The position numbers and the translations under genes are program-made. Positions 1-24,282 of a DNA stretch of 27,036 nt are shown piece by piece. The notes beneath the pieces were generated by a model, which saw only the letters and a list, made by a program, of their open reading frames with translations, made no database searches and was not told the origin of the DNA. Each line of letters begins with the position of its first letter. Positions within the stretch are counted from its first letter, which is position 1. The stretch is from a bacterium (GTDB taxonomy: Bacteria; Blakebacterota; Blakebacteria; Blakebacterales; Blakebacteraceae), in NCBI GenBank assembly GCA_025774205.1, contig JALGWK010000023.1, positions 1 through 27,036 of the forward strand. The letters are read 5' to 3'.

Positions 1-504
1 CCGGCCGGTGATGTCGAGGAAGTCCTGCAGGGCAGCAGCCTGGCGACTGGTCACGACGCCGACCCTGAAGGGGAATTCCGGAATCGGCTGCTTCCGGTCG
101 GGATCGAAGAGCCCTTCCTTTTCCAGCTTCTCCTTCAGTTGCTGGAAGGCGAGATCCAGTTCTCCCACCCCCGCCGGTTTCAGCTGCCTGATGACCAGCT
201 GGTACTTTCCCTTTAAGGGATAGAGGGTGACCTCGGCCTGGACGAGGACCTTCATCCCGTCTTCCAGGTCGAACCTGAGCGAGGCGACCGTCTCGTTCCA
301 GATGACGATTCCCACCTCGGCGCCACTGCTCAGTTCTCCCTCTACCCAGACGGTCCCGATCCCGTCCTGAAGGAGGTCCCGCACGCGACGGTTGAGTTCC
401 TCGACAGTCAGGACGGCCGGGGTTGTTTCCTCATCAGCCGGACTGACATGGGTGGTCTCTTCCGGTTGGTCGAACAGAGTGGGCTGTTCCGGATCTGATG
501 GCAC
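1..504 (-). CDS. xseA: Exodeoxyribonuclease VII large subunit, N-terminal 168 residues (cut by window edge)
   Basis: The large subunit of exonuclease VII degrades single-stranded DNA together with XseB. Only the N-terminal OB-fold and the start of the catalytic domain lie in the window. The family pattern is clear: LTVEELNRRVRDLL, then VWVEGELS, LYPLKGKYQLVIRQLKPAGVGEL, KLEKEGLFD, and FPFRVGVVTSRQAAALQDFL. The GTG start at 504 shares one base with the folD stop (TAGTG), so the two genes are translationally coupled. About 30 residues precede the first conserved block and look like a low-complexity leader. One oddity: the usual SGHxYFxLKD strand after VEGELS is missing. The sequence goes directly from SSG to AEVGIVIW, about ten residues short but still in frame. 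The family call is firm; whether the gap is real is not known. Confidence 0.93.
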   Translation of the reverse strand, partial: MPSDPEQPTLFDQPEETTHVSPADEETTPAVLTVEELNRRVRDLLQDGIGTVWVEGELSSGAEVGIVIWNETVASLRFDLEDGMKVLVQAEVTLYPLKGKYQLVIRQLKPAGVGELDLAFQQLKEKLEKEGLFDPDRKQPIPEFPFRVGVVTSRQAAALQDFLDITGR

Positions 505-1391
505 TACCCGATACCGTGGATCGTTCTGGCTGCCTGGAGGGTGTTGACCATCAGCATGGTGATGGTCATCGGTCCCACCCCGCCCGGCACCGGTGTGATG
601 GCCGAAGCCACCTCGAGTGCGGCCTCGAAATCGACATCGCCCACCATGCGCCAGCCTCGCTCACGAGTGGAATCCTCCACGCGGTTGCTGCCGACATCGA
701 TAACAACCGCCCCCGGTTTCAGCCAGTCGGCCTTGATGAACCGCGGACTTCCGATGGCCGCGATCACGATGTCCGCCCGCCTCACGATATCGGGCAGATC
801 CTGCGTCCGGCTGTGGGCCACTGTCACCGTTGCATTGGCTTTGTCATTCTTCTGGACGAGGAGCATGGCCACCGGTTTGCCGACGATATTGCTCCTGCCC
901 ACAACCACCACTTCCCGCCCCCCCGGCGGATTACCGGAGCGGTGCAGGAGTTCAAGTATCCCGGCCGGCGTACAGGGAGTGAAGCGGGGTTGTCCCACCA
1001 TAAGGCGACCGACGTTATCGGGATGGAAACCATCGACATCCTTGGCAGGATCGATGGCCAGCAGGACTTTCTGTTCATCGATGTGCCCGGGGAGCGGCAA
1101 CTGCACCAGGATGCCATGGACCGCGGGGTCCCCGTTCAGCCTGTCCACCAGCGAGAGCAGTTCTTCTTCTGACATGTCCGCGGAGTGTTCTTCGGCGAAT
1201 GAGTTGATCCCCAGCTCGCCGCAGGCCTTCTTCTTCATGCCGACATAGGAGTGGCTTCCGGGATCATCACCGATCAGGACCGTCGCCAGCCCGGGGGTTA
1301 TCCCCTGTTCAGTGAGCTCGCGCACACCATTGGCGACCTCCACCCGTATCGTGGCTGCTATCTGCTTCCCGTCTATCAGTGCGGCGCTCAT
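504..1391 (-). CDS. folD: Bifunctional methylenetetrahydrofolate dehydrogenase / methenyltetrahydrofolate cyclohydrolase
   Basis: FolD interconverts 5,10-methylene-, 5,10-methenyl- and 10-formyl-tetrahydrofolate in the cytoplasm and so supplies one-carbon units for purine and formyl-Met-tRNA synthesis. At 295 residues it has the usual length. The substrate site shows Y49 and K53/K55 in SYVGMKKKA. QLPLPGHID and DVDGFHPDN follow. The NADP site is GRSNIVGKPVA, and the C-terminus carries VPGGVGPMTITML. It overlaps the upstream phosphodiesterase gene by four bases (ATGA) and its stop overlaps the xseA start. The folD-xseA pairing is common in bacteria. I see nothing abnormal in it. Confidence 0.97.
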   Translation of the reverse strand: MSAALIDGKQIAATIRVEVANGVRELTEQGITPGLATVLIGDDPGSHSYVGMKKKACGELGINSFAEEHSADMSEEELLSLVDRLNGDPAVHGILVQLPLPGHIDEQKVLLAIDPAKDVDGFHPDNVGRLMVGQPRFTPCTPAGILELLHRSGNPPGGREVVVVGRSNIVGKPVAMLLVQKNDKANATVTVAHSRTQDLPDIVRRADIVIAAIGSPRFIKADWLKPGAVVIDVGSNRVEDSTRERGWRMVGDVDFEAALEVASAITPVPGGVGPMTITMLMVNTLQAARTIHGIG

Positions 1392-2215
1392 TCCTCCTCA
1401 TCGTCCTCCTGCCGGGTGGTATACGCATCCGGATCGAGCGGCACCCGGTGCCGGTGGATCGCGACAGCGGAACCGGTCGACTCTTCAACCTCGATGGTGA
1501 CGGCGCAGAAACAGGGATCTCCCCTGGCGACCTGGAAACGGTTAAGAATGCCCAGTTTGAACCGGTTCAGGGCGTCTTCCTTGCGAACACCGATCACCGA
1601 GTCGAGCGGGCCGGTCATGCCAACGTCGGTGAGGTAGGCGGTTCCCCCGGGCAGGATACGCTCATCGGCGGTCTGAACGTGGGTATGGGTACCGATCACT
1701 CCCGACACGCGTCCGTCGAGGTGCCATCCGAAGGCGACTTTCTCACTCGTCGCCTCGGCGTGGAAATCCACCAGGATGATGTCGGTCTTACCCTCCAGCT
1801 CCTCAAGGATCGTGTCGACAGTCCGGAAAGGATCGTCCACACCCCTCATGAAAACCCGGCCCTGCAGATTGATCACGGCCACCCGGGCACCATTCCCGGC
1901 GGTTCCGGTCCAGACTCCCTTGCCGGGCACTCCGGGCGGATAGTTGGCCGGACGGAGGAGCCGCGGTTCATTGTTCAGGTAACCGAGGACTTCGCGCTTG
2001 TCGAACGTGTGATTGCCGCCCGAGATCACATCGATCCCGGTTTCGAAGAGCTCCTGCGCGACCCGCTCGGTGATGCCGAAGCCGCCGGCGGAGTTCTCCC
2101 CGTTGGCCACGATGAGATCGTACCTGTCGACTGCCTCCTCACCTCTGATCCAGGCCGTCATGGCGCGACGCCCTATTCTGCCCATGATGTCGCCGATAAA
2201 AAGGATCCTGGTCAT
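1388..2215 (-). CDS. YmdB-family metallophosphoesterase (TIGR00282; probable 2',3'-cyclic nucleotide phosphodiesterase)
   Basis: This family is known from Bacillus YmdB, a cytoplasmic phosphodiesterase that acts on 2',3'-cAMP and affects RNA turnover and biofilm decisions. The metal-binding blocks are all visible in order: FIGDIMGRIGR at the N-terminus (Asp9), VANGENSAGG, GGNHTFDK, VDFHAEATSEK and GTHTHVQTADE. The open frame continues upstream to 2305, but ATG at 2215 is chosen. It places FIGDIMG at the extreme N-terminus as in the family and has AAGGAA seven bases upstream, giving 275 residues. The C-terminus is an acidic tail. It follows zapA and overlaps folD by four bases. In many bacteria rny (RNase Y) sits between zapA and this gene; here there are only 67 bases between them. 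Confidence 0.93.
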   Translation of the reverse strand: MTRILFIGDIMGRIGRRAMTAWIRGEEAVDRYDLIVANGENSAGGFGITERVAQELFETGIDVISGGNHTFDKREVLGYLNNEPRLLRPANYPPGVPGKGVWTGTAGNGARVAVINLQGRVFMRGVDDPFRTVDTILEELEGKTDIILVDFHAEATSEKVAFGWHLDGRVSGVIGTHTHVQTADERILPGGTAYLTDVGMTGPLDSVIGVRKEDALNRFKLGILNRFQVARGDPCFCAVTIEVEESTGSAVAIHRHRVPLDPDAYTTRQEDDEEE

Positions 2216-2282
2216 CTGTATTCCTTGCGGGTACTCAGGCGGTGTTGCGGACGGAACAGCGGTTCGGAAGGTACGTAAGGGC

Positions 2283-2564
2283 TCACCCGGTGGAGAGTCC
2301 CTCACGGACCCTGTCCGCGAGGAGTGACAGTCGCTCCTCGATGTCTCCGATCTCTGTGTCGCTCGAACCTCTCAACCTGAACAGTTCGTCGGTGATATTG
2401 AGGGCTGCCAGGATCGCCACCTTGGTGGTCGATTTGACACTGAGTGTATCGGCCACTTCCTTCATCTTCCCATCCACGTACTCTGCCACCTCGTGGATAT
2501 AATCGGAATCAGCCTCGCCCCTGACCGGGTACTCCGTTCCGTAGATGGTCACCTTGACACTCAT
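2283..2564 (-). CDS. zapA: Cell division protein ZapA
   Basis: ZapA is a small cytosolic protein that cross-links FtsZ filaments at the division ring. The 93-residue product has the family pattern: an N-terminal beta segment (VKVTIYGTEYPVRGEAD), then YIHEVAEYVDGKMKEVA, then KVAILAALNITDELFRL, and a C-terminal coiled coil. It starts three bases after the stop of the small coiled-coil gene upstream. The two are therefore almost certainly co-translated and possibly partners. Position downstream of pheT is the usual one for zapA in many phyla. Confidence 0.92.
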   Translation of the reverse strand: MSVKVTIYGTEYPVRGEADSDYIHEVAEYVDGKMKEVADTLSVKSTTKVAILAALNITDELFRLRGSSDTEIGDIEERLSLLADRVREGLSTG

Positions 2565-2567
2565 GAT

Positions 2568-2840
2568 CTACAACACTTCCAATCTGGCCAGAACGTTCGC
2601 CAGCCGGCTCTGGATCTCTTCCCGTTTCCGGCGGTACTGAAGATCGAGTTCCCCGGAGGCTTCAGCAGCCTTGCGACGGAGTCGATCGAGCTCTTTCGCC
2701 TGGCGGTTGAATTCAGCTTTCAGCTCCTTGAGGCGTTCCTCGGCTCCGGTATTGTTCTTCAGTTTCTTCCGAAACTCGTTGAGCAGCCTGTCGACCTGCT
2801 TCTCAAGATCATCTATCGGTTTCGTACGTGATCCGGCCAC
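2568..2840 (-). CDS. Small coiled-coil protein encoded directly before zapA (hypothetical)
   Basis: I do not recognise a named family. The 90-residue product is almost entirely predicted helix with heptad-like spacing of Leu, Ile and Val and very high charge. Typical stretches are DDLEKQVDRLLNEFRKKLK, EERLKELKAEFNRQAKELDRLRR and REEIQSRLANVLARLEVL. There is no signal peptide and no membrane segment, so it should be cytosolic. The start is GTG at 2840 with AGAGG seven bases upstream. It sits 42 bases after pheT and three bases before zapA. By analogy with ZapB, or with Caulobacter ZauP, a coiled-coil protein encoded beside zapA, it may be a Z-ring partner of ZapA. That role is inference from position and shape only. 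Confidence 0.8.
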   Translation of the reverse strand: MAGSRTKPIDDLEKQVDRLLNEFRKKLKNNTGAEERLKELKAEFNRQAKELDRLRRKAAEASGELDLQYRRKREEIQSRLANVLARLEVL

Positions 2841-2882
2841 GGTGCAACCTCTGCCAGTCAGGTCCGGGGACCGGGATCGGTA

Positions 2883-5270
2883 TCAACCCCTCAGTCGCGC
2901 CCCGAACTCGTTCTCGAGTATCTTCACCAGCTTCTTAAGTATATCCTCCAAATCACTATCTGACATTGTATTGCCGATATCTCGCAATCGCAAGGAGAGG
3001 AGCACGCCCTTCCGGTCGGCAGGAATCTGATCTCCCGTGTACCGTTCTACCAGCCTGACATCCTCAACCCGCTTCTCGGTTTTCAACCGGTCGATGATGG
3101 TGCCAACCGGGGCCTCAAGGGGCAGGATGAGTGACAGGTCCCTCTCTGCCGCCGGGAATCTCGGCAATCCCTGGTAGCGGCGCACGGAACGGTGCCCCGT
3201 TTCGATCGAATCAAGTCGGAAGCCGAAGACCCAGACCGGCTTCGTGAAACCCAGGGCTTCTGCGAATCCGATCGTGAGCCGGCCGGCGAGTCCTGTCTCG
3301 TTTTCATCATCGTCTACGTAGCGGATCCCGGTCGATGCGTCGAGGGCCGCCCCGTTGTACGGAAGAGCCCGCGGAGTGTCAATACGGAGGGCCCGGTAAT
3401 GAGCCGCCATAAGGCCTGTCAGATCGAACCAGTCCGTCCCGGGGGAGGATTCGTCCCATATCTCTGCCAGTCGGGACCCATGGAGAGCTCCCACGATCCA
3501 CTCCTGCTCCAGCGCCTTGTCACCTTCAAGGCGGTGAACCATTCCGATCTCGAAAATCCTCACATCGGTCATCTGGTGGCGATGGTTGTGTGCCAGGGCC
3601 CTCAGGACTCCCGGAAGGAGATCCCGTCGGAGTTCCGAACTCTCCTCACCTCGCGGATTGGCCAGGACGACAGGCTCACTCCCGGGCAGGAAGGGATGGG
3701 CGGCATCTCTGCCCACCAGTGAATCGGTGATGACCTCGTAGAATCCGAAATGCACCATCGCGTTCCGGATATCCACGCGAAGCTTCTGTCGGAGTGTCGG
3801 ACCGGCCGCTGCCTCACCTGAGAGTCTGGTGTCACTGCCGAGATTGTCGTAGCCCCAGACCCTGGCCAGTTCTTCGGCGACGTGGGCAGGGCCGTCGGCG
3901 TCCGGCCGCCAGGGGGGGATGGTCACCTGCCACTCCCCCGCTTGAGCCCCATCATTCACTTCGAAACCGAGCCGCTCGAGGATACCGGTCGCCTCATCAT
4001 CGGGTATCGAGGCCCCGAGCAGGCTGTCGACCCAGGTCTTCCGGACTGAGACCGCCCGTTGCTCGAGCGCCTCCGGAGCGACCTGCTCGACCAGTCCGGC
4101 GGCAACTTCGCCTCCGGCCATGTCAGCGATCAGGCGCGCGGTCCGGTCCGCTGCCCGGCCCGTAATGGTCGGATCGGTACCCCGCTCGAACCGTTTCCCG
4201 CTTTCGGTGATGAGGTCGAGGCGGCCACCGCCGATGCTGACCCTGATCGGATTGAAGTGCGCGCTCTCCAGAAGCACATCGGTGGTGTCACCACTGATCT
4301 CGGAATCGAATCCGCCCATCACCCCGGCCACGGCCAGGGCGCGGTCCGGGTCGGCGATGACAAGGAGTTCCGGATCGAGGGTCTGGACCTTCTCATCGAG
4401 GGTTCTGAGCGCTTCGCCCTCGCGAGCCCGGCGGACGATGATGGAACCACCGGCGACCTGACGCAGATCGAAGGCGTGCTGGGGTTGACCGAGTTCCATC
4501 ATGGTGTAGTTGGTGATATCCACGATCAGGTTGATTGGTCTCAGACCCACCGCACGCAGACGACCCGCGAGCCATGGGGGGGAGGAGTCGATCCGAACAT
4601 TCCGGATGAGGCGGGCCGAGTACCGGGGGCAGCCCTCGAAATCCTCGATTGCCACGCTGATGGTTTCCGAGGCGGCAGGACCACTCTCGTTGACGGAGAA
4701 ATCGGGTGGTTCCAGGGGGAGTTGGAAGAGAGCCGCCGTCTCCCGGGCGAGGCCGTAGATGCTCAGGGCGTCGGGACGGTTCGGAGTGACGTCGATCTCG
4801 ATGATCTCGTCATCAATGCCCAGGTATTCCGCGAAGGATGTTCCGACGGCAGCCTCTTCCGGCAGCACTACGATGCCGGCCGCGTCATCCCCGATTTCAA
4901 GTTCCACCTCGGAACAGATCATACCCATCGAGACTTCACCGCGGATTTTCGCCTTCTTCAGGCGCATCCCGTTCGGCAGGAGAGTGCCAACCTCGGCGAA
5001 AGGAACCTTCTGTCCTGCCGCGACGTTCGGCGCTCCACATACCACCGGTATCGGTTCTCCCCCGATGGTCACCGAACAGACACTCAGTCTGTCGGCATCG
5101 GGGTGTCTGCCGGCCTCGAGTACTTCAGCGACCGTGACTCCCTTGAATATCTCGCCGGGACGCACGATCTCCTCCACTTCGAGACCCGCTACGGTCAGGC
5201 TCACGGCCAGGTCCTCGGCGCTCCCCTCATAGGGGACGAAATCACGCAGCCAGCTCAGTGGTAGACGCAT
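2883..5270 (-). CDS. pheT: Phenylalanyl-tRNA synthetase beta subunit
   Basis: PheT forms the alpha2-beta2 enzyme with PheS and carries tRNA-binding and editing functions. At 795 residues it matches the bacterial long form. Domains in order: N-terminal MRLPLSWLRDFVPY; the EMAP-like OB fold (HPDADRLSVCSV, VVCGAPN, MICSEVELEIG) at about 40-155; the B3/B4 editing region (VDITNYTMMELGQPQHAFD); the B5 domain; the catalytic-like core (VWGYDN, NPRGEESSELRRDLLPGVL); and the C-terminal ferredoxin-like anticodon-binding domain (RFPAAERDLSLILP, VRLVERYTGDQIP). The start lies one base after the pheS stop. No frame break or missing block was seen. Confidence 0.98.
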   Translation of the reverse strand: MRLPLSWLRDFVPYEGSAEDLAVSLTVAGLEVEEIVRPGEIFKGVTVAEVLEAGRHPDADRLSVCSVTIGGEPIPVVCGAPNVAAGQKVPFAEVGTLLPNGMRLKKAKIRGEVSMGMICSEVELEIGDDAAGIVVLPEEAAVGTSFAEYLGIDDEIIEIDVTPNRPDALSIYGLARETAALFQLPLEPPDFSVNESGPAASETISVAIEDFEGCPRYSARLIRNVRIDSSPPWLAGRLRAVGLRPINLIVDITNYTMMELGQPQHAFDLRQVAGGSIIVRRAREGEALRTLDEKVQTLDPELLVIADPDRALAVAGVMGGFDSEISGDTTDVLLESAHFNPIRVSIGGGRLDLITESGKRFERGTDPTITGRAADRTARLIADMAGGEVAAGLVEQVAPEALEQRAVSVRKTWVDSLLGASIPDDEATGILERLGFEVNDGAQAGEWQVTIPPWRPDADGPAHVAEELARVWGYDNLGSDTRLSGEAAAGPTLRQKLRVDIRNAMVHFGFYEVITDSLVGRDAAHPFLPGSEPVVLANPRGEESSELRRDLLPGVLRALAHNHRHQMTDVRIFEIGMVHRLEGDKALEQEWIVGALHGSRLAEIWDESSPGTDWFDLTGLMAAHYRALRIDTPRALPYNGAALDASTGIRYVDDDENETGLAGRLTIGFAEALGFTKPVWVFGFRLDSIETGHRSVRRYQGLPRFPAAERDLSLILPLEAPVGTIIDRLKTEKRVEDVRLVERYTGDQIPADRKGVLLSLRLRDIGNTMSDSDLEDILKKLVKILENEFGARLRG

Positions 5271-5271
5271 C

Positions 5272-6291
5272 TCAGAACTGCTCCAGGAAACGGAGATCGT
5301 TCTCGTAGAATAGCCGGATATCGTCGATGCCGTATCTCAGCATGGCGATCCGTTCCACGCCCATGCCGAAGGCGTATCCGGTCACCTTCTCCGGATCGTA
5401 TCCGACGAAACCGTAGAGATCGGGATTCACCATCCCCGCTCCGAGGATCTCGATCCAGCCTGTCCCCTTGCACAGCCGGCAGCCCTTGCCGCTGCACTGA
5501 AAGCAGCCGATATCAAGCTCGGCGCTCGGTTCGGTGAAGGGGAAATAGGAGGGTCGGAAGCGCGTCGGCACCTCCTCGCCGAACAGCCTGTGCGCGAAGG
5601 TGTCGAGGGCACCTCGCAGCATGGCCATGCTCACGCCCTCATCGACGTAGAGCCCTTCGACCTGGTGGAAGACCGGGCTGTGGGTAGAGTCAGGAGTGTC
5701 GGATCGGTAGCAGCGGCCGGGAACGATGATCCGGACCGGCGGTTCCTGGTGTTCCATGGTCCTGATCTGGACAGGACTGGTATGCGTTCGAAGGACCATT
5801 CCGGGTGGCGATTCGGTCCAGAAGGTATCCCACATCCCCCGGGCGGGATGGTGTTCGGGGATGTTCAGCGCCTCGAAGTTGTAGTATTCCGATTCAACCT
5901 CAGGCCCCTCTGCGACGTCGAATCCCATCTCCCGGAAGACATCGATGATCTCATTGAGCGTCGTGGTCAGCGGGTGGAGCCGGCCGATAAAGGGAGTCCG
6001 TCCCGGATGGGTAATGTCGAAATCGGCCCCTGTTTCCGATTCGTCGGCGGACAGATTCCTGAGCCGTTCTTCGAGGCAGGCAGCCAGTTCCCCTTTGAGG
6101 GCATTGAGGGTTCCACCGGCAATCGGCCGTTCATCTGCGGGAAGATCGGGGATCTGGCGCAGGAGGAGGGTGATGCGTCCCTTCCTGCCGATCCAGGCCA
6201 CCCGCGCAGACTCCAGTTCATGCTCGTCGGCGGCAGATTCGAACATCTGCCTCGCCTCTGCGGCAAGGGCCTCATAATCGATCGAACTCAC
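5272..6291 (-). CDS. pheS: Phenylalanyl-tRNA synthetase alpha subunit
   Basis: This is the catalytic subunit that charges tRNA-Phe. The 339-residue product has the N-terminal coiled coil, then GFDVAEGPEVESEYYNFEAL, HPARGMWDTFW, HQVEGLYVDE, the Cys-rich loop CFQCSGKGCRLCKGTGW with EILGAGMVNPD, and class II motif 3 FGMGVERIAMLRYGIDDIR. The start is GTG at 6291; no in-frame ATG lies nearby, and the Shine-Dalgarno match is weak. It follows rplT after a 96-base spacer that holds a strong terminator-like hairpin. Its expression may therefore depend on read-through or attenuation. Confidence 0.97.
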   Translation of the reverse strand: MSSIDYEALAAEARQMFESAADEHELESARVAWIGRKGRITLLLRQIPDLPADERPIAGGTLNALKGELAACLEERLRNLSADESETGADFDITHPGRTPFIGRLHPLTTTLNEIIDVFREMGFDVAEGPEVESEYYNFEALNIPEHHPARGMWDTFWTESPPGMVLRTHTSPVQIRTMEHQEPPVRIIVPGRCYRSDTPDSTHSPVFHQVEGLYVDEGVSMAMLRGALDTFAHRLFGEEVPTRFRPSYFPFTEPSAELDIGCFQCSGKGCRLCKGTGWIEILGAGMVNPDLYGFVGYDPEKVTGYAFGMGVERIAMLRYGIDDIRLFYENDLRFLEQF

Positions 6292-6314
6292 GACGTCAGT
6301 CCGTCCCTGTTCGT

Positions 6315-6347
6315 AAAAACCGGCCGGTACCCCGGGGCACCGGCCGG
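6315..6347 (-). terminator. Strong intrinsic terminator or attenuator between rplT and pheS
   Basis: Reading on the minus strand, a perfect 9-bp stem CCGGCCGGT / ACCGGCCGG encloses a 10-base loop that is itself CCCC/GGGG. Five T follow immediately. This is a textbook rho-independent terminator lying inside the thrS-infC-rpmI-rplT-pheST block. In E. coli the same spot holds the pheM leader peptide and the pheST attenuator. Here I find no Phe-rich leader ORF before the hairpin, so either another control mechanism works on it or it simply tunes read-through. Confidence 0.85.
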
Positions 6348-6387
6348 CCGTGTTCAGATCGATACGGGAGCGCGGTTACCCGGGGTG

Positions 6388-6744
6388 TTAACTGCTCCCC
6401 GTCCGGGCGGTCTCGATCACTTCGGCGAAAGCCTCGTCATCACGCACCGCCAGATCCGCGAGCACCTTCCTGTTCAGCGCGATACCGGCACTATCGAGAT
6501 CGTGGATCAGCTGGCTGTAGGTCGTGCCGTGCTTGCGGGCAGCGGCGTTGATCCTCACGATCCAGAGCTTCCTGAAATCCCGTTTCTTCCTGCGGCGGTC
6601 ACGATAGGCATACTGGCGGCCGCGTTCAACGGCTTCCCGGGCAGTACGATAGAGTTTGCGTCGTCCGCCGACATATCCCCTGGCCTGCTTCAGATACCCT
6701 TTTCTTCGCCGGCGACTCGCCGGACTGTTCTTTGCTCGCGGCAT
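6388..6744 (-). CDS. rplT: 50S ribosomal protein L20
   Basis: L20 binds 23S rRNA early in large-subunit assembly. The 118-residue protein shows the full family sequence: an Arg/Lys-rich N-terminus, KGYLKQARGYVGGRRKLYRT, AYRDRRRKKRDFRKLWIVRI, NAAARKHGTTYSQLIHDL and NRKVLADLAVRD. Its ATG shares one base with the rpmI stop (TGATG), so it is translationally coupled. In several bacteria L20 represses its own operon by binding the leader. No clear rRNA mimic was identified here. Confidence 0.98.
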   Translation of the reverse strand: MPRAKNSPASRRRRKGYLKQARGYVGGRRKLYRTAREAVERGRQYAYRDRRRKKRDFRKLWIVRINAAARKHGTTYSQLIHDLDSAGIALNRKVLADLAVRDDEAFAEVIETARTGSS

Positions 6745-6935: not shown

Positions 6936-6945
6936 GTTGCTTTCC

Positions 6946-9470: not shown

Positions 9471-9486
9471 CGGGTTCCGCCAGCAG

Positions 9487-11290: not shown

Positions 11291-12075
11291 ATGTCGACCG
11301 ATCCCGGGACCCTCCCCTCCGATCCGCTGAAGAAGCTGGAATCGATCATGGCGCTCCTCCGTGGACCCGATGGATGCCCCTGGGACCGTGAGCAGGACCA
11401 TCGTACCCTCCGGACCCACCTGCTGGAGGAGACCTACGAGTTTTTACCGAGGAACTGGGGGATCTCCTCCTGCAGGTCGTCTTCCATGCCCAGCTTGCCT
11501 CGGAACGGGGCGCCTTCGACCTGGATGCCATCGCGGAACGCATATCCTCGAAGCTCATCCACCGTCACCCCCATGTCTTCTCGACAACCGAAGTCTCCGG
11601 TACCGGTGAAGTACTGCGGAACTGGGAAAGACTGAAGCAGGAGGAAGGGAAAGAATCGGTTCTGGATGGCGTGCCGGCGATCTTTCCGGCCCTCCTGCGC
11701 GCTCACCGTATCCTGGCCAAGGCTGACCGGGCCGGATTCCGATGGCGATCGTCAGACGGGGCACTGGCCAAGGTCCGTGAAGAGTTTGCTGAGTTCGAAG
11801 AGGTGGTCGTCGCCGCCATGGAAGGTGATCAGCGTGCGGTTGAGGAAGTTGCCTGGGAATTCGGAGACCTGGTCATGTCACTGGCGACCCTGCTGCTCCG
11901 TTTCGAAATCGATCCTGAACTGGCTGTTCGTGAGGCCACCGGACGCTTCGAGAGGCGCTTCCGCCGGATGGAATCCGCTGTCGGAGCCGATGGGGTTGTG
12001 ATGCCCGATCTCGATCGTGAGGATCTGCTGGAGCGCTGGCGACTTGCCCGTCAATCCGAGCCCGGTTCAGAATAG
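11291..12075 (+). pseudogene. mazG: Nucleoside triphosphate pyrophosphohydrolase MazG, reading frame broken near 11441-11448
   Basis: MazG hydrolyses (d)NTPs to monophosphates and pyrophosphate; the two-domain form cleans the nucleotide pool and influences ppGpp. From ATG 11291 (AGGA upstream) the frame reads PLKKLESIMALLRGPDGCPWDREQDHRTLR and LLEETYEF. The match then jumps to the -1 frame: EELGDLLLQVVFHAQLASERG, KLIHRHPHVF, LRNWERLKQEE, RAHRILAKADRAGFRW. The C-terminal MazG domain with EEFAEF and EFGD is intact to 12075. In known MazG domains the EExxE and ExxD metal motifs are 12-28 residues apart. Here, even after correcting the frame, only four residues separate them, so about 34 bases seem lost at the break. 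The last 25 bases overlap plsC on the other strand. It is either a true pseudogene of the first domain or a sequence artefact. Confidence 0.88.
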
Positions 12076-12721
12076 GCCAGCCGGGTTTCCTCGATCCAGC
12101 GCCGGGCTCTATCCCTCAGCTCGTGACGATCCGCCTGCTCGAGACCTTCAGTCTCGATCGCCTCCCCGACGACCATCGTGATCGTGCCGCGCCTGATGAA
12201 TCTCCGACTGGGAGGGAGGATCGAATAGGCCCCGATCAGGGTGAGGGGAACGATCGGCGTCTCGGTAGCTATTCCAAGCCTGAAGGCGCCGGTCTTGAAC
12301 GTACCCAGTTCGCCGGTCCGACTCCTGGTCCCCTCGGGGAACAGGAAGAGCTGACGCCCGCTGTTCAACGCTGTCTCTGCCGGTTCGAGACTTCGGCGCG
12401 CCTTTTTCCTGTTCTTCCGAACAACCGAAACGAAGCCCTGGGCGTACATGGCCCAGCCGAAGATCGGGATACGGAAAAGAGATCTTTTGGCGAACATGTT
12501 CACGCCCGAAGGCAGAAGAGAGATCACGGTGGGGATGTCGAGGACGCTCTGGTGGTTCGCGATGAAGATGGCACTGAGGTCTTCCGCCCCTTCGGGGTCA
12601 GGCGAACCACTATGGTCAGGAGCGCTACGATCCCGCTCACCGCGGCAGCTGTTATCCAGACCATCCGGCTCCGTATCTCCTCACCCAGGGTGCCTTTCTC
12701 ATTCCGGGCCGTGCCTGCCAT
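12051..12721 (-). pseudogene. plsC: 1-acyl-sn-glycerol-3-phosphate acyltransferase (PlsC family), frame broken near 12587-12600
   Basis: PlsC-type enzymes acylate lysophosphatidic acid at the inner membrane to make phosphatidic acid. From ATG 12721 (GGAAGG upstream) the first frame gives a short N-terminus and a membrane helix (WITAAAVSGIVALLTIVV). The match then moves to the -1 frame, where the catalytic NHQSVLD appears, followed by FAKRSLFRIPIFGWAMY, LFLFPEGTRSRTG with FKTGAFRLGI, and PIVPLTLIGAY. These are the normal acyltransferase blocks in order. Between the membrane helix and NHQSVLD the family usually has some 20-30 more residues, so sequence also seems to be missing at the break. The gene converges on mazG and overlaps it by 25 bases. 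Confidence 0.85.
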
Positions 12722-13875: not shown

Positions 13876-14925
13876 TCAAATTGCGGGTCCCTCCGACCCT
13901 GAAATACAGCGTTCCAGCTCATCTATGACCTGTCGAGGAGAAATATCGAGCAGACAATGCCGTTCCCGCCTCCAGCAGACCCTCTGCCCATGTTTGCTGC
14001 ACGGACTGCAGGGAAGACCGAGGTGGATATGGCTGGTCGATTCGCCGCGTGGGGAGAAACCGAGTTCGGGGCTCGTCGGGCCGAACAGACCTACCGTGGG
14101 AACTCCTAGAGCGGCGGCGAGATGCATCGGACCCGAGTCGTTGGTGACCACCCCGTCAGCGACAGCCAGCAGGGCTGCCAGTTGCATGATATCGGGCATC
14201 GGACCGAGCAGGGGCGGATGATCCTCACCATCCGTCAGTTCGGGCCCGATCTCCGGCTGGTCGGGGGGAGCTACCACGATCGGCGTATTCCCTCCCAGTT
14301 TCAGTAACGCGGCCAGCTCGCCGAAATGGAACCGTGGCCACTCCTTGGGAGCGTGACGGGCTCCGGGCAGCAGCACGATCAGCCTCCCTTCCCTCCCGGC
14401 CATGAGATCCCGTCTCACCTTCAATCCCCGGTTGATCTGCTCTTCGGTGAGGTGTACCGCCGGCGTGCCCTCTGCCTCACTCGGTTCGGTACAGTCTGCG
14501 GTCTCGAGGTACCGATCGATGACGGGAGTGAGGGGCCGGGACCTCTTGAGCGGCGGTCTCAGCACCAGCAGGATCCGGCGCAGGCGTTGCTGGCGATACC
14601 GGCGGGTAACAGATTCCCCCACCAGGGTAATGAGCCTGCTCCGCAGGGAACCGTGCAGATCAATAATCGTGTCGAAGCCGGCTTCCCTGACCATCCGGAT
14701 GAGTGAGGAGAGGGATCGGGTGTCGGGATCGAATCCCCAGATATCATCCACCTCGGCATTGGACCGGTGGAGATCGGCATAAGCAGATCGGGTCAGGAAG
14801 GTGATCGATGAATCGGGAAAGCGGCGCTTCAGGGCTCGGAATACCGGCTCGGCGAGTATGACGTCACCCAGACTTGAAAACCGGATGACGAGGATGTGCG
14901 GGATCAGGCTTTCGGTGCCCGGCAT
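13876..14925 (-). CDS. Glycosyltransferase family 9 (heptosyltransferase-like)
   Basis: GT9 enzymes such as WaaC and WaaF transfer heptose to the lipopolysaccharide core at the inner face of the cytoplasmic membrane. The 349-residue product has the N-terminal Rossmann half (ILVIRFSSLGDVILAEPVFRAL, FDTIIDLHGSLRSRL) and the C-terminal nucleotide-sugar half (LLPGARHAPKEWP, VVTNDSGPMHLAAALGVPTVGLFGP). A Cys-rich tail follows (LPCSPCSKHGQRVCWRRERHC). ATG 14925 overlaps the previous gene by 22 bases. The exact acceptor sugar cannot be told from sequence. It suggests an LPS-bearing outer membrane. Confidence 0.92.
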   Translation of the reverse strand: MPGTESLIPHILVIRFSSLGDVILAEPVFRALKRRFPDSSITFLTRSAYADLHRSNAEVDDIWGFDPDTRSLSSLIRMVREAGFDTIIDLHGSLRSRLITLVGESVTRRYRQQRLRRILLVLRPPLKRSRPLTPVIDRYLETADCTEPSEAEGTPAVHLTEEQINRGLKVRRDLMAGREGRLIVLLPGARHAPKEWPRFHFGELAALLKLGGNTPIVVAPPDQPEIGPELTDGEDHPPLLGPMPDIMQLAALLAVADGVVTNDSGPMHLAAALGVPTVGLFGPTSPELGFSPRGESTSHIHLGLPCSPCSKHGQRVCWRRERHCLLDISPRQVIDELERCISGSEGPAI

Positions 14926-15322
14926 ATTGGCGCCAGGGTGTCCGCCAGCCGGTTCATCACATCACCCGAGTCCTTCAGGCGGATAGCCAGATTATAGATA
15001 CGACGACGCATACGACCGGATTCATTGACCCCCATCTTCAGGGGAACCTGGCAGCGATCGAGCAGATAGGGCACGAACGGGTGCATATCCATGCTCAGAT
15101 CGATGGCCATGTCGTATCGAGTTCCCACTGGGGGAACTCCGACTTGAATGAGAATATCTGCGGCAGGACATTCTGGCGATCACCTTCATCGAGGGGAAGC
15201 ACGAGCAGCACCCGTTCGACAACATGGAGGGCATCCCCCATCCTGACCGCCTGCCGCCGGTCACGACGCAGAGAGGCAAGAATCACGAAGAACCGCGAAA
15301 GTGTCCATCGAGTGCCCTTCAT
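14904..15322 (-). pseudogene. Small GT9-like protein downstream of secA, frame broken near 15115-15135
   Basis: From ATG 15322, just after secA, the first frame reads an Arg-rich N-terminus, then VERVLLVLPLDEGDRQNVLPQ and FSFKSEFPQWEL. The next recognisable part lies in the -1 frame: YDMAIDLSMDMHPFVPYLLD, VPLKMGVNESGRMRRRIYNL, then LADTLAPICRAPKA to 14904. This resembles the N-terminal half of a GT9 glycosyltransferase (strand - GD - strand - DLAIDL - KxG) without the C-terminal nucleotide-sugar half. I do not recognise a named family. Sequence also seems to be missing at the break, since the two halves join more tightly than in GT9 relatives. A perfect 8-bp inverted repeat covers the break. 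It may assist the GT9 encoded immediately downstream. Confidence 0.55.
15119..15139. repeat. Perfect 8-bp inverted repeat at the break in the GT9-like gene
   Basis: GAGTTCCC and GGGAACTC flank a 5-base loop. It coincides with the place where the reading frame of the small GT9-like gene shifts. No T-run follows, so it is not a terminator. A hairpin of this kind can promote polymerase skipping, or it can simply be chance in coding sequence. Confidence 0.6.
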
Positions 15323-15338
15323 CGCTTGCAGATCTCCT

Positions 15339-18312
15339 TCATCGCCCGTGACAGTGCTTGAATTTCTTCCCCGATCCGCAGTGACAGGGATCGTTCCGGC
15401 CCGGTTCCTGGCCGACCGTGACCGGCCGGCGTTTGGCCGGGGCTCCTCCGGGCGGTGGCGCTTCTGGACCCGCCCCTCCTGCTTGCGTGCCTCCTCCCCC
15501 CTCCACCATCGCCCCCCTGAAAGCCATTCCGACCGCGTCCTGGTGGACGGCCTCACCACTTCGAGCCCGCACACTCATGGCCTGCTGCTGGAGCTGGTTC
15601 TCGACCGCGGCCGACTCGCGGAAGAGGAATTGCATCGTCTCCCGGGTGAGGCTCGACAGCATGTCCATGAACAGGTAGTAGCCTTCCTGCTTGTACTCTA
15701 CCAGAGGATCCTTCTGACCGTAAGCCCTAAGGCTGATGCCTTCCTTCAAACGGTCCATCTCGTAGAGATGGCTCATCCACTTCTCATCGATGACGCGAAG
15801 AATGGCGTATCGCTCGAGTTTCCCGCTGAGATCATCCCCCAGCAGTTCCTTCCTCCTGGACCACGCCTCACTGACTCCGGTCGAAATCGCCTCAAGCAGA
15901 TCCTCCTGGTCCATCTCGGCGCGCTTCGTCTCATCCACCCTGAGATCGACGAAACAGACCTCCAGCAGTTCCCGATGCAGATCATCCCACTGCCACTGAT
16001 CGGCGTAGGTGTTCTCCCCGGTGAAACGGTTCACGATGTCATGACTGATATCGAGAATAAGTTCCTCAACGTCCTCGCCGAGCGCGACCGCGTCGAGCGC
16101 CCGACCCCGCCGCGTGTAGATAACTTCCCGCTGGGTGTTCATCACGTCGTCGTATTCGAGCAGTCGCTTCCGGATGCCGAAGTTCTGCGCCTCGACCCGC
16201 TGCTGGGCCTTGCCGATCGCTTTCGTAACCATCGGATGGGCGATGACCTCGCCCTCCGACGCCGGCGATCCGATCGGACCCGAAGAGCCTCATCAGATCG
16301 TCTTCCAGGCTCATGTAGAAACGGCTCGAACCGGGATCCCCCTGCCGTCCCGATCTTCCCCTCAGCTGGCGATCGATCCGTCGGGCCTCGTGGCGCTCGG
16401 TGCCGATGATATGGAGCCCTCCGAGATCGACAACCCCCTCCCCCAGCTTGATATCGGTACCTCGCCCCGCCATGTTGGTCGCGATGGTGATGGCTCCCTT
16501 TTGACCGGCGATCAGGACGATCTCTGCCTCACGCTGGTGCTGTTTGGCATTGAGCACTTCGTGAGGGACGCCGGACCGCTTCAGGATCCGCGATAGCATC
16601 TCGGAGACCTCGACACTCGTGGTACCGACCAGGACCGGGCGCTGGGCGCGATAACACTCGGTTATCTCTTCTATAATGGAGTTGAATTTCTCCCGTTTGG
16701 TCCGGAAGATGACGTCATCCATCTCGTCCCTGACCACTTCCCGGTTGGTGGGAATGACGAGGACGTCGAGTTCGTAGATCTCCCAGAACTCCCCCGCTTC
16801 CGTCTCGGCGGTACCGGTCATACCCGAGAGTTTGCTGTACATCCGGAAGTAGTTCTGGATCGTGATGGTGGCCAGCGTCTGGGTCTCTTTCTCTATCTTG
16901 ACCCCTTCCTTGGCCTCCAGCGCCTGGTGGAGTCCTTCCGAAAACCGCCGACCGGGCATGAGACGGCCGGTGAACTCATCCACGATGATCACCTGACCGT
17001 CCTGGACAACGTAATCCACATCGATCTCGAAGAGCGTGTAGGCCTTCAGGAGCTGGTGGATGTTGTGGAGCCGCTCACTCCTGTCAGCGTAATTCCGGTG
17101 GAACTTCTCCCGCTCATGCTCAGCCCGCTCGTCCGAAAGATCTCCGCTCTCCACCTTCCCTTCCAGCTCGCTCATGATCCCCGAGAGGTCGGGGAGCACG
17201 AAGAGATCGGGATCGTTGGGACTGAGATTGGAGCGGCCGGAGTCCTGGAGATCGATGGTATTGGCCTTCTCGTCGATCACATAAAGAAGGTCCTCATCGA
17301 GGACATGCAGTTTCTTCTCGCGCAGGTAATCGTTCTCCACCCGCTCCAGCAGCTTGATGATACCCGTCTCCTTCTTGAGCTTCATCAGCTTGTTATGCTT
17401 CGGAGATCCCCTCTGCACCTGCAGGAACTTGATCCCGGCCGTGTATTCCTTGTTGCTCTCCTCCTCCTCTTCGGCCTCATTAAGCAGTCTCTCGGCCTCA
17501 CTGAAGAGGGAGTTCACCAGGCGTGTCTGGGCCCGGACCAGGGATTGTACTTTGGGGCGGTACTCGTCGAACTTGTGGGTGCTCCGATCGACCGGACCGG
17601 AGATGATGAGGGGTGTGCGCGCTTCATCGACCAGAACCGAGTCGACCTCATCTACGATAGCATAGTGATGTTCACGCTGAACCCTGTGTTCCGGCGTGAT
17701 GGCCATGTTGTCGCGGAGATAGTCGAAACCGAATTCGTTGTTCGTCCCGTAGGTGATGTCCTTGTTGTACTCGGCCCTCCGCTCGTCGGGCATCATGTCA
17801 TGCTGGATGATTCCCACATCCAGTCCGAGCCAGCGATAGACACCGCCCATCCATTCCGCGTCACGACGGGCCAGGTAGTCGTTGACCGTGACCAGATGGA
17901 CGCCCTTCCCTTCCAGGGCGTTGAGATAGAGAGGCATGGTGGCGACCAGGGTCTTCCCTTCCCCGGTTGCCATCTCGGCGATCTTGCCCTCATGCATCGC
18001 AATGGCGCCGATCAGCTGGACATCGTACGGCACCATATCCCATTCGATATCACGTCCCGTGATCTGCCATATCTGCCCGACCAGGCGGCGGCAGGCATCC
18101 TTCACCACCGCGAACGCCTCCGGCATGATCTCGTCGACTGTTTCACCCTCGGCCAGGCGCTGCCTGAACTGGTCGGTCATGGCCTGGAGATCCGCGTCGG
18201 AGAGTGAGCGACACTCCTCGACGAAGCCGTTGATCTTCTCCACCATCGGGGCGAGACGCTTCAGCTCCCGATCGTGCTTGGTGCTGAACATTTTGGTGAT
18301 GTTGAGAGCCAT
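15339..18312 (-). pseudogene. secA: Preprotein translocase ATPase SecA, reading frame broken near 16255-16262
   Basis: SecA drives proteins through SecYEG at the cytoplasmic membrane. From ATG 18312 the first frame holds Walker A ATGEGKT (115-121), [20 protein letters not shown], a PPXD roughly 90 residues longer than E. coli's, and [23 protein letters not shown]2 follows with [40 protein letters not shown] and [12 protein letters not shown]. The match then moves by +1 to [32 protein letters not shown] and the C-terminal zinc tail CHCGSGKKFKHCH. The expected MDRLGM-like residues are absent, so about 20 bases appear lost at the break. Corrected, the protein would be about 1000 residues. SecA is essential, so a real pseudogene is unlikely; a sequence error is the better explanation. 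Confidence 0.95.
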
Positions 18313-18333
18313 CGCTGTCGCCCCTTCTTCCGC

Positions 18334-19056
18334 CTAGTAACCCGCCAGCAGCCGGTCGCCGAGTTCAACCGGCAGACCGGCGTCGAGGATCGCGTCGCGC
18401 GCGCCTTCGACATCGTAAGCCACCCGCATGGGGGTATAAGTCCATGGTTCGGTGTCGAGGATGGCGAAGGCCGCCCGCGGATCGCCGTCGCGGGGTTGAC
18501 CGACGCTGCCCGGATTCAAAACGCTTCGCCTCTCCCTCAGTTCGATCTCCCGGAAATGAACCAGCCGCGCAGGAGCTTCCTTCTCGATGAAACAGGCCTG
18601 CACGTGGCTATGGCCGGTTACCACCACTTTCTCCTCCACCGATTTCAGGGCCATGTCGGCCTGGTGCCGATCAAGGATGTAGAGCCACGCCTCTGGAAGC
18701 ATCGGATGTCCGTGAGTGATCCTGATGTCGTTCAGTTCCGCCGACATGGGCAGTGTGGCGAGCCACGCGAGATCGTCTTCGGGGATGTTCTCAGCCGTCC
18801 AGGCCAGGGCCGCATACGCCCTAGGATTGAAGTTGTGAGCTCCTGAGATCTGCACCACGTGATGATCGTGATTTCCACGAACCGTTACGTCGCAGTTCTC
18901 CCTCACCCACTGTACGCATTCGGCCGGAAAGGCTCCATAGCCGACAATATCGCCGCCGCAGATGATCTGGTCCGGCGATTCCTTCTCGACGCGCGCCCAT
19001 ACCGCCTCAAGGGCATGGCGGTTGCCGTGTATATCACTGATAAGCGCAAGTTTCAT
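18334..19056 (-). CDS. Calcineurin-like metallophosphoesterase (YfcE-type superfamily)
   Basis: The 240-residue cytosolic protein carries the dimetal phosphoesterase pattern in order: ISDIHGNRHAL near the N-terminus, CGGDIVGYG, VRGNHDHH, ITHGHP, VVTGHSHVQ and LNPGSVGQPRDGDP. These residues bind two metal ions. The family hydrolyses diverse phosphodiesters or phosphomonoesters, and the natural substrate here cannot be read from sequence. It overlaps the nusB stop by four bases and is followed by secA after 21 bases, so it belongs to the same transcript. Confidence 0.9.
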   Translation of the reverse strand: MKLALISDIHGNRHALEAVWARVEKESPDQIICGGDIVGYGAFPAECVQWVRENCDVTVRGNHDHHVVQISGAHNFNPRAYAALAWTAENIPEDDLAWLATLPMSAELNDIRITHGHPMLPEAWLYILDRHQADMALKSVEEKVVVTGHSHVQACFIEKEAPARLVHFREIELRERRSVLNPGSVGQPRDGDPRAAFAILDTEPWTYTPMRVAYDVEGARDAILDAGLPVELGDRLLAGY

Positions 19057-19469
19057 ACGGTCCTTTCGGTCATCTCCCGGTATACAGAATCGAGGATGCC
19101 GTTCACAAACCGTTTCGAGTCTGATGAAGAGTACTTCTTCGTCATTTCGATCGATTCGTTGATACAGACCTTGCTGGGGATATCAGGAAAATGGAGCAGT
19201 TCACACAATCCCATCCTGAGGATGAGCTTGTCGATCAGAGCGATCCGCCCCAGGTCCCAGTTCACCGCCCGCTCTGCGATGATGCGGTCCAACGCCTCGT
19301 GTTCACGATCCACCCGTATCGCCAGCCTCCGCGCGAAATCGACAAGATCTTCTTCATACTCCGCCGCGGAGAGCAGATCATTGAGGGCCTGTTCGATCGG
19401 TTCCTCACCGATCTCGCAGGCATAGAGTGCCTGGAGCACGACCTCTCTTGCTTTCCGCCGGAGACCCAT
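19053..19469 (-). CDS. nusB: Transcription antitermination factor NusB
   Basis: NusB works with NusE (S10) on boxA RNA to keep RNA polymerase elongating through rRNA operons. The 138-residue protein is all-helical with the family blocks RRKAREVVLQALYACEIGEE, DRIIAERAVNWDLGRIALID, ILRMGLCELLHFPDIPSKVC and INESIEMTKKYSSSDSKRFVNGILD. It starts one base after the ribH stop. The ribH-nusB junction is conserved across many bacteria. Confidence 0.96.
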   Translation of the reverse strand: MGLRRKAREVVLQALYACEIGEEPIEQALNDLLSAAEYEEDLVDFARRLAIRVDREHEALDRIIAERAVNWDLGRIALIDKLILRMGLCELLHFPDIPSKVCINESIEMTKKYSSSDSKRFVNGILDSVYREMTERTV

Positions 19470-19470
19470 C

Positions 19471-19976
19471 TCAGCCTGTTTCCTTCATTGAGCGGAGCAG
19501 GTTCACCATCTCAAGACATGCCCGGGCTGCTTCCCTGCCCCGATGGCGATCTTCCTCCCCCTTTGCCCCACCCGCGTCGGGTGCCAGTCCGGCGCGGACC
19601 AGAGCCTGGGCCTCGGTACCGACCGTCAGCACCCCTGTCGCGACCGGAATGCCGGAATCGAGCGAGACCCTGGTCAATCCTCCGATCGATTCCCGGCTGA
19701 CATGTTCGAAATGGGTCGTCTCTCCCTCGATCACGCAACCGAGGCCTATGATCCCGTCCACGGTACCGGAACCGGCCAGGATACTGGCTGCCAGGGGCAG
19801 TTCAAGGGCTCCGGGAACCCGGACGACAGTTACGTCAGAGCGTGCGACACCGTGATCGGTCAGAATGGTGAGCGCGCCATCGAGGAGCGATTCGACGATC
19901 TCCCGGTTGAAATCGGCCGCGATAATCCCGATCCGCAGGCCGTCACCGTCCAGTTTGCCCCGATACAATTGATGGC

Positions 19977-19980
<4 letters not shown>
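19471..19980 (-). CDS. ribH: 6,7-dimethyl-8-ribityllumazine synthase
   Basis: Lumazine synthase joins 3,4-dihydroxy-2-butanone 4-phosphate and the ribityl-pyrimidine to make the riboflavin precursor, usually as a large hollow capsid or pentamer. The 169-residue product shows [49 protein letters not shown] (with the catalytic His) and [14 protein letters not shown]. The loop between RAG and [13 protein letters not shown], normally short (GKAGNKG-like), is about 11 residues longer and rich in Asp, Glu, Lys and Arg. ATG 19980 overlaps the ribBA stop (ATGA). An upstream extension of the frame lies inside ribBA and is not used. Confidence 0.95.
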
Positions 19981-21263
<1,283 letters not shown>

Positions 21264-21267
21264 GCTC

Positions 21268-21906
21268 TCACCCGATTCCTTTGAGTTGCTGCAGGTACGG
21301 CTCCAGTTGCGCGGCGACGTACTTGGCGATCATGTCCACTTCGAGGTTGACCCTGTCACCGATCTCGATATCTCCGAGACTGGTCACTTCCAGGGTGTGA
21401 GGAATCAGCGCCACCGAGAAGGCTTCATCGGCCACATCGACGACGGTAAGACTGACTCCTGAGATGGTGATCGAGCCCTTGAACACCATGTAGCGCATGA
21501 TGGCAGGTGGCGCGGAGTACCAGTGGATCACTTCATCCTTGCCCGCCTCCCGGGCGTCGTAGCTGTCCGGGGGGCCCGAAAGACGCTCACCGACCCCGTC
21601 TATATGACCGAAGACAAGGTGGCCGCCGAGGCCCTGATGCAGGGTCAGCGCGAGTTCCAGATTCACCCGGTCCCCTTCCCGCAGATCCCCGAGAGTGGTC
21701 AGCCTGAGAGTCTCGGGTATCGCCTCAACCGAGAACGTCTCCACGTCGAACTCCACCACAGTCAGGCAGACGCCGCTGGTACAGACGGAGTCTCCAAGTG
21801 AGAGTCGCCCGACGATCGGCCTGGCCGAGATCGTGAATCGTACTGCTTCATTCTTCTGCTCCAGCTTCACAACCTGGCCCATCGCTTCCACAATTCCGCT
21901 GAACAT
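21268..21906 (-). CDS. ribE: Riboflavin synthase alpha chain
   Basis: This enzyme makes riboflavin from two lumazine molecules. The 212-residue protein begins [10 protein letters not shown] as usual and contains two repeated lumazine-binding barrels. The first has [20 protein letters not shown] and [19 protein letters not shown]; the second has [22 protein letters not shown] and [37 protein letters not shown] sits between them. It lies 30 bases after ribD and four bases before ribBA. Nothing is missing. Confidence 0.96.
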
Positions 21907-21936
21907 GCTGCACCCTTTCGAAAGCTGTTACCGCTT

Positions 21937-23085
21937 CTAAAGACAGAAGCCCGGTTCCAGATCAGCGTCCGGCAGCGCCGTGACCAGCAGATCCTCGCCG
22001 TACTCCCGGACCCGCATCGCTCCCAGTCGGACCGGAGCGGCAAGGCTTTCACGCATGATTCCGCCCCCGGCGCCGGTCACCTTCGGTGAGATCCAGATCT
22101 CCCAGTGATCGATGAGGTCGGCCGATGCCAGCGATGCCAGCAGTCCGCCGCCGCCCTCCACCATGACTCCGCCGATCCCGATCTCATGCAGGACGCCCAT
22201 GATCCCCCTGACATCGAGTCCGCCCCGCGGGTCGATCTCCACCCCCGTGACTTCCGCTCCCGCGTTCCTGAGCGCCTCTGCCGCGTCGGTCTCCAGCATC
22301 TCAGGCGCCGTCAGCACCATGACCGCTCCCCCGGGCGAAGTAATGACCCGGGCTCCGGGTGGAGTGCGCAGTCGCCGGTCCGCAATCACGCGCCTCGGCT
22401 GGCGATCGAACAGAGTGCCGTCGGTGCGCCGCGCGCTCAACCGTGGATCGTCAGCCAGGATGGTGCCGCTCCCCACCAGCATGGCGTCCACCTCCGATCG
22501 ACGCCAGCCGACCTGTTCGAGCGCCTTCGCGCCCGTGACGGCAAGTGTCCTCCGGCCGGGAAGCATGGTCCGCCCATCGAGCGTTCGGGCTGCTTTGGCG
22601 ATCACCACCGGTCGCGCTTCGCTCGAAGCCAGGAAATACCTGCTGTTCAGGGCTATGGCCCGGTTACTCTCCACCCCCGTGATCACTTCCAGCGGGGCAT
22701 TTCGCAACCGATCCAGACCGGCCCCGCAGTCGTGACAGCACGGATCCTCTGCCGCGACAACCACCCGCTCGATCCCCGCTTCGATGATTGCCTCAGTACA
22801 GGGTGGGGTTCTTCCGTGATGATTGCAGGGCTCCAGGGTGACGTAGAGGGTCGCTCCCTCAGCGTTGGCGCCGGTATCCGAGAGGGCGGCCACTTCGGCG
22901 TGCGGTTCGCCCGGACGTTCGTGATACCCCTCACCGATGATCGTTCCCTCACGGACCACGACCGCGCCTACGGCCGGGTTCGGCGGCGTGGTCCACCGGC
23001 CGAGCCGGGCCAGGTCGATCGCCCGTCGCATGAATCGCTGATGCTGATCATCAGGAGCTGATGCCGAAGAGCCATGAACAGTCAT
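21937..23085 (-). CDS. ribD: Bifunctional diaminohydroxyphosphoribosylaminopyrimidine deaminase / uracil reductase
   Basis: RibD carries out the second and third steps after GTP cyclohydrolase II. The N-terminal deaminase shows zinc ligands H62 in PHAEVAAL, C87 in [12 protein letters not shown] and C96. The C-terminal reductase shows [26 protein letters not shown] and [14 protein letters not shown]. The chosen ATG at 23085 gives 382 residues. It has no Shine-Dalgarno sequence, only an AT-rich TTATATATTCT directly before it; the next in-frame Met is residue 19 ([11 protein letters not shown]), another possible start. The same frame is open into the preceding permease, producing a false 781-residue fusion. 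No FMN riboswitch fits in the 52-base spacer. Confidence 0.94.
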
Positions 23086-23137
23086 AGAATATATAAGATG
23101 CGAAAGTGAGAACGCTGGAACAAGCGCGGTAAACGCC

Positions 23138-24282
23138 CTATTCGTACCTGAGCGCTTCGACCGGATCGAAGGAACTGCGGCCGGCAGCGGGGTAACGATC
23201 CCGACCAGGAGACCGATACCGACCCCGATCGCGGCCCCGATGGTCCCCCCCACACCGCTCAGTACCACTGCCTCAACGAGGAACTGGAACACGATATCAC
23301 TCCGGCGAGCCCCGACCGCCTTCCTGACTCCGATCTCCTTCGTCCTTTCGGTGACCGAGACCAGCATGATGTTCATGATACCGATACCGCCCACCAGGAG
23401 GCTGATGCTGGCGATCCCGACCATCACCAGGCTGATACCGAGGATCAGCGCGTTCATCATATCCCTGATACTGTCGGAAGTTATCATCTCGAAGTCGTTC
23501 GGCTCACCGGGGGCCACCCCGCGGCGATTTCGCAGGATGCTGACTGTTTCGTCGACCGCGTACTGGAGGCGCCCCGGCCGGGCCATCACCGCGATCTGCA
23601 CCTCGCTCCGTCTCCCCCAGTACTTCCGGAAGGTGGTGAGGGGCACGAAGACGATGTTGTCCTGGCTGAAACCGAGGAATTCTCCCTGACGTTCCAGTAC
23701 CCCGATAACAAGAAAGCGGTGACTGTCGATCCGGATCTCACGGCCGAGAGGATCGATGGTCGGGAAGAAGCGTTCGACGAGATCGGCTCCGAGGATGACA
23801 ACGTTGCGCCGATTCGAGTTGTCGAGCGGCCCGAAGAACCTGCCGGCCTCCAGATCCAGCCCCTGTATCCGCGGGAGGTTCTCATCACCGCCGTAGAGGA
23901 TGACATTCGGATTCGTTTTCTCTCCCCCGTACCGGACTTCCACCCCGAAATGGGTACTCGACCCCGACACCAGCTCGACCGAATCGGCGTCCTTTCTGAT
24001 CGCGTACATGTCATCGAGAGTGAGTTCATCCCAGTCGGTCTCGTTGCTGTGACCTCCGACCTGGATCTCCACACTTGGCCTGGTCTGGATATAGAATGTC
24101 TCACTGCCAAGGTCGCTGAGCTGCTCGGAGAAGAAGCGCTCGAGTCCCTTGATCATACTGCTCATGCCCACCACGGCCAGGACGCCGATGATGATCCCGA
24201 GGCTCGTCAGCAGGCTGCGCAGGGGGTTGGCGAAGAGAGAACTCATCGCGACCCGGCCGGTTTCCCTGATGCTGACCGCCAT
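23138..24282 (-). pseudogene. MacB-type ABC transporter permease 2, C-terminus broken near 23170-23176
   Basis: This is a FtsX/MacB-like inner-membrane permease with an N-terminal membrane helix ([20 protein letters not shown]), a large periplasmic domain, and C-terminal helices around [40 protein letters not shown] and [20 protein letters not shown]. The frame is good as far as TPLPAAVP. The family ending [10 protein letters not shown] and its stop (23138-23140) then follow directly in the -1 frame. Aligned with the neighbouring permease 1, exactly 85 bases (about 28 residues, most of the last membrane helix) are absent at this point. As sequenced, ribosomes would run on into ribD. It may be an assembly deletion. 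It starts nine bases after permease 1. Confidence 0.9.

What the first reader, a model, noticed from the sequence alone, without database searches (positions are those of the whole stretch)
1..24282. Six conserved genes in one window each lack an internal segment, five with a frameshift
xseA, mazG, plsC, secA, a small GT9-like gene and a second MacB-like permease each match their family well on both sides of one point, and residues expected at that point are absent. Estimated losses are about 30 bases in frame (xseA), 34 (mazG), 20 (secA) and 85 (permease 2, measured against its paralogue). Four breaks shift the frame by -1 and secA by +1. Other genes between them look clean. Three of the five frame breaks fall on inverted repeats of 5-8 bp (15119-15139, 16249-16268, 23155-23171); the repeats in mazG and plsC are only 4 bp, so this could be chance. 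Hairpin skipping in library preparation, contig misjoining, or real genome decay would each explain part of it.
Basis: partly seen in the sequence, partly recalled or inferred. Interest (0 to 1): 0.62.

Follow-up and report, generated by a model that had tools for sequence, protein, structure and literature searches.

The report
Unmarked assembly joins in a metagenome genome
Six genes in this stretch really do lack 20-139 bases that relatives have, but the losses are almost certainly blind joins made when the draft genome was assembled from a metagenome, and not a property of the organism.

Summary
Aligned to the closest relative (G001, same genus, ~77% DNA identity), the window has six clean gaps: xseA 57 bp (in frame), mazG 43, plsC 94, a small unnamed gene 139, secA 20, second MacB-like permease 85. 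The same genes are unbroken in G001 and, where covered, in G002, G003 and G004. No other coding frame break was found in the window.

The pattern is genome-wide in this 527-contig draft genome (apparently a MAG). In 128.5 kb aligned to G001 I counted 19 blunt coding deletions of 17-164 bp, one removing the DnaE PDIDIDF motif. Only 4 of 19 keep frame, and junctions show no direct-repeat homology. Hairpins are not enriched over 2,616 random coding positions; the three in the window look like chance.

The mirror-image error is also present: exact, abutting duplications of 104 and 70 bp here, and 38, 38 and 65 bp in G001 (one breaks metK). None were found in 449 kb of four control genomes. Neighbouring contigs carry unmerged exact overlaps (72-114 bp) or gaps (~91, ~131 bp).

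Best explanation: paired-end scaffold joins with the spacer lost or misjudged, a known kind of draft-genome error. Hairpin skipping and genome decay are not supported. Not novel biology.

The parts
327..328 (-). blunt gap in xseA (exonuclease VII large subunit): 57 bp absent, in frame, inside the OB-fold domain
   Evidence: alignment to G001:C256; Pfam tRNA_anti_2 and Exonuc_VII_L
11442..11443 (+). blunt gap in mazG: 43 bp absent, frameshift
   Evidence: alignment to G001:C195; the G001 copy is an open 288-aa frame with MazG domain
12572..12573 (-). blunt gap in plsC (1-acyl-glycerol-3-phosphate acyltransferase): 94 bp absent, frameshift
   Evidence: alignment to G001:C195; Pfam Acyltransferase on the window piece and on the intact 266-aa G001 copy
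15115..15116 (-). blunt gap in a small unnamed gene (weak DUF6913 likeness, not GT9): 139 bp absent, frameshift
   Evidence: the missing peptide is present in G001, G002 and G003 and absent from G000
16256..16257 (-). blunt gap in secA: 20 bp absent, frameshift between the P-loop domain and the wing/scaffold domain
   Evidence: only secA hit in G000
23170..23171 (-). blunt gap in the second MacB-like permease: 85 bp absent; the frameshift fuses its frame to the downstream ribD frame (781-aa ORF 21937-24282)

Best explanation
The six gaps are assembly errors. The window is one whole contig of a fragmented draft genome. Where the primary assembly had a short unresolved stretch, two pieces were joined end to end with no marked gap, so the bases between them are missing. 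Where the pieces actually overlapped, the same blind joining left an exact tandem duplication. Shown here: the gaps, their genome-wide rate, bluntness, frame-blindness, the companion duplications, and the unmerged overlaps and small gaps between neighbouring contigs. Inferred: that the joins were made by paired-end scaffolding with the spacer dropped or a wrong negative distance trimmed. The program responsible is not known.
For: Window = G000:C23, 27036 bp, of a genome with 527 contigs, 85.9% complete, 4.8% contamination. All six gaps are absent from G001 and no break was seen in G002-G004 where covered. 19 blunt coding deletions of 17-164 bp in 128.5 kb of G000, against 2 clear ones in G001, both near a contig end; the window's share, 6 of 19, is not unusual (P 0.19). 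Only 4 of 19 in frame. Homology between deletion ends 0.53 bp, expected 0.70. One deletion removes the DnaE PDIDIDF motif, and the family profile matches that gene in two broken pieces. Exact head-to-tail duplications of 104, 104 (93 matching) and 70 bp in G000 and 38, 38 and 65 bp in G001, breaking a K+ channel/TrkA-like gene and metK; none in 449 kb of four other genomes. Neighbouring G000 contigs share unmerged exact overlaps of 114, 107 and 72 bp or are separated by about 91 and 131 bp. Chen et al. 2020 (PMC7111523) describe local assembly errors, suspected to be commonest in IDBA-UD, and duplicated sequence at scaffold joins.
Against: No reads were available, so no junction was shown to lack read support. 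One 23-N run exists in G000 (C124), so spacers were not removed everywhere, unless that run is a mask. G001 is the only same-genus reference. Gap lengths are inferred from a relative and could be off by a few natural indel bases.
Confidence: 0.95

Rival explanations
1. Hairpins in the template made polymerase or library chemistry skip segments, leaving deletions beside inverted repeats.
For: Stems of 8, 6 and 6 bp near three window junctions; the six window junctions alone exceed random positions at P 0.02.
Against: Across 19 junctions stem length (4.63 vs 4.39, P 0.17) and folding energy (P 0.11) do not differ from 2,616 random coding positions; the 13 junctions outside the window average 4.31. 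It does not explain exact abutting duplications.
Confidence: 0.03
2. Real genome decay: the organism carries these broken genes.
For: The gaps are in the deposited sequence, and deletions are a normal route of gene loss.
Against: Extrapolated, about 275-713 deletions per genome, including the only secA hit and the PDIDIDF motif of the dnaE orthologue; no excess of in-frame events and no direct repeats at the ends; same-genus and same-family genomes intact; exact two-copy duplications alongside.
Confidence: 0.02
3. The short forms are used as they stand, with the missing information restored at RNA or translation level.
For: None found; only the conserved flanks would fit.
Against: 20-164 missing bases cannot be supplied by frameshifting or bypassing, and the missing peptide of the 15115 gap is nowhere in G000.
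Confidence: 0.003

Closest known systems
Local assembly errors and scaffold-join errors in metagenome-assembled genomes (Chen et al. 2020, Genome Res., PMC7111523)
   Same: Consensus stretches not expected to be supported by reads, broken genes entering databases, and duplicated flank sequence at scaffold joins.
   Different: The paper describes joins with Ns inserted; here nearly all joins are unmarked, with sequence missing or duplicated and no spacer. Read support could not be examined.
Deletions between direct repeats by replication slippage (general knowledge)
   Same: Loss of a short internal segment.
   Different: No microhomology at the ends.

Membership tests
Scaffold-join or local assembly error in a draft genome | Intact form present in close relatives | tested here: met
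Scaffold-join or local assembly error in a draft genome | Occurs genome-wide in the same assembly, blind to reading frame | tested here: met
   19 events in 128.5 kb, 4 of 19 in frame
Scaffold-join or local assembly error in a draft genome | Companion errors: exact duplicated overlaps at joins, unmerged contig-end overlaps | tested here: met
Scaffold-join or local assembly error in a draft genome | No read supports the junction as written | not testable with these tools
   raw reads not held
Hairpin-skipping artefact | Junctions enriched in inverted repeats or stable folds | tested here: not met
   P 0.17 for stems, P 0.11 for folding energy over 19 junctions
Slippage deletion between direct repeats | Short direct repeats at the two ends of the deletion | tested here: not met
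   mean 0.53 bp against 0.70 expected, measured on the relative's sequence
Genuine pseudogenization | Broken genes dispensable or redundant, broken form supported by reads or shared by relatives | tested here: not met
   only secA hit broken; relatives intact; read support not testable

The most novel reading that the evidence does not exclude
The organism really carries hundreds of short, blunt, frame-blind deletions in conserved genes, arising by an unknown repeat-independent process and tolerated or compensated in some unknown way.
Probability: 0.01. Interest if true: 0.9.

Novelty: not a real feature. Interest (0 to 1): 0.08.

Why it matters
It matters only as a quality warning. At about one broken gene per 7 kb, gene-loss, pseudogene and fusion calls from this genome (such as the permease-RibD fusion frame) would be false. 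The paired signature of blunt coding deletions plus exact abutting duplications is a read-free way to flag such assemblies.

Tried and rejected
Hairpins at junctions: tested on 19 junctions against 2,616 random coding positions, no enrichment. Direct-repeat slippage or short-overlap merging: no microhomology. GC effect: missing segments 59.4% GC, flanks 58.4%. Missing 139-bp segment elsewhere in the genome: not found. Special clustering in this window: not significant (P 0.19). DnaE loss as proof of a dead cell: dropped, because a second DNA_pol3_alpha match exists on G000:C174, perhaps a contaminant or a second polymerase. C359 17462/17514 are extra bases in G000, so were not counted; C56 5564 reflects a 65-bp duplication in G001, not a loss in G000. 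A literature search for the combined signature found nothing.

Full report
What the window is. The window is the whole of contig C23 (27036 bp) of a draft genome of 3.09 Mb in 527 contigs, 85.9% complete with 4.8% contamination. Its closest held relatives are G001 (same genus), G002 and G003 (same family) and G004. G001 contigs C195 and C256 cover almost the whole window in the same gene order.

The observation. Alignment to G001 shows six gaps and no other coding frame break: xseA 57 bp after base 327, mazG 43 after 11442, plsC 94 after 12572, a small gene 139 after 15115, secA 20 after 16256, permease 2 85 after 23170. All are absences in the window. The remaining indels are intergenic, in the tRNA, or multiples of three. 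At protein level the five frame breaks appear in the window and nowhere in G002, G003 or G004 where they cover these genes. The 139-bp segment is intact in G001, G002 and G003 and absent from G000. The permease break fuses that frame to ribD, giving a 781-residue ORF with MacB, FtsX and RibD domains. The 'small GT9-like gene' has no GT9 match; the intact G001 copy gives only a sub-threshold DUF6913 hit.

Is it special to this window? No. I fetched 333 kb of G000 and 478 kb of G001 and aligned 128.5 kb in common. Coding deletions with well conserved flanks on both sides number 19 in G000, 17 to 164 bp long (list). G001 shows two clear ones, both near a contig end. Six of 19 fall in the window, which holds 21% of the bases (P 0.19). 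Extrapolation gives roughly 275 to 713 per genome. The list combines two automatic screens and inspection of the alignments, so the exact number is soft; C56 1124 and 1569 and C359 21573 rest on the codon-position screen alone.

What the junctions look like. Four of 19 lengths are multiples of three, so there is no sign of selection to keep frame. The ends share no direct repeat: 0.53 bp on average against 0.70 expected, measured on the relative's sequence. The missing segments are not GC-extreme. Inverted repeats are not enriched: mean longest stem 4.63 against 4.39 at 2,616 random coding positions, P 0.17; folding energy P 0.11. One deletion (C208:1303, 31 bp) removes the PDIDIDF motif of DnaE; that motif carries the catalytic aspartates (established knowledge). 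G000 has another DNA_pol3_alpha match on C174, so this alone does not prove non-viability, but secA has only one hit.

The mirror-image error. G000 carries exact head-to-tail duplications: 104 bp in C24, period 104 with 93 matching in C200, 70 bp in C101. G001 carries 38 bp in C258, 38 bp in C170 and 65 bp in C117. None of these periods is a multiple of three. The C24 copy shifts the frame of a K+ channel/TrkA-like gene and the C170 copy shifts metK (identified by reading the translations). No such duplication occurs in 449 kb from four other genomes. Neighbouring G000 contigs carry unmerged exact overlaps of 114, 107 and 72 bp and others are separated by about 91 and 131 bp on the relative's map. 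These are the two situations, overlap and gap, that blind joining would turn into duplications and deletions.

Mechanism. The simplest account is that contigs were joined by paired-end evidence with the spacer lost or with a wrong negative distance trimmed. The evidence for joining errors is strong; the particular step is inferred. Chen et al. [quoted passage not shown] A 23-N run in C124 shows that at least one gap is marked, unless it is a mask of the collection. No reads were available, so the direct test was not run.

Verdict. Score low as biology.

Noticed in passing
window 25557-25597; full copies e.g. L160 4690-4855, L155 6323-6490, L191 8999-9165, L190 2362-2527: A dispersed palindromic repeat of about 166 bp (one strand folds at -95 kcal/mol), 87-93% alike between copies in G000 and G001, with many short partial copies. 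The window holds an apparently internally shortened copy between the ABC ATPase and permease 1, within 65 bp that G001 lacks there; the full copy in C56 also looks absent from the matching place in G001. It looks like a MITE- or REPIN-like element, but no Y1 transposase (PF01797) was found in either genome.
   Followed up: partly
G000:C174 5414-6139: A second DNA_pol3_alpha match in a long open frame (1450 aa) in G000; G001, G002 and G003 have one each. Possibly a second polymerase or a contaminating contig.
   Followed up: no
L133 14828-15706; window 14904-15697: The small gene between secA and the GT9 gene is conserved in the family but matches no Pfam family above threshold (DUF6913 at E 0.08).
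   Followed up: partly
G001:C170 8281-8357 (L180): Exact 38-bp tandem duplication that shifts the frame of metK in the relative G001, so the reference genome carries the same class of error at a lower rate.
   Followed up: partly
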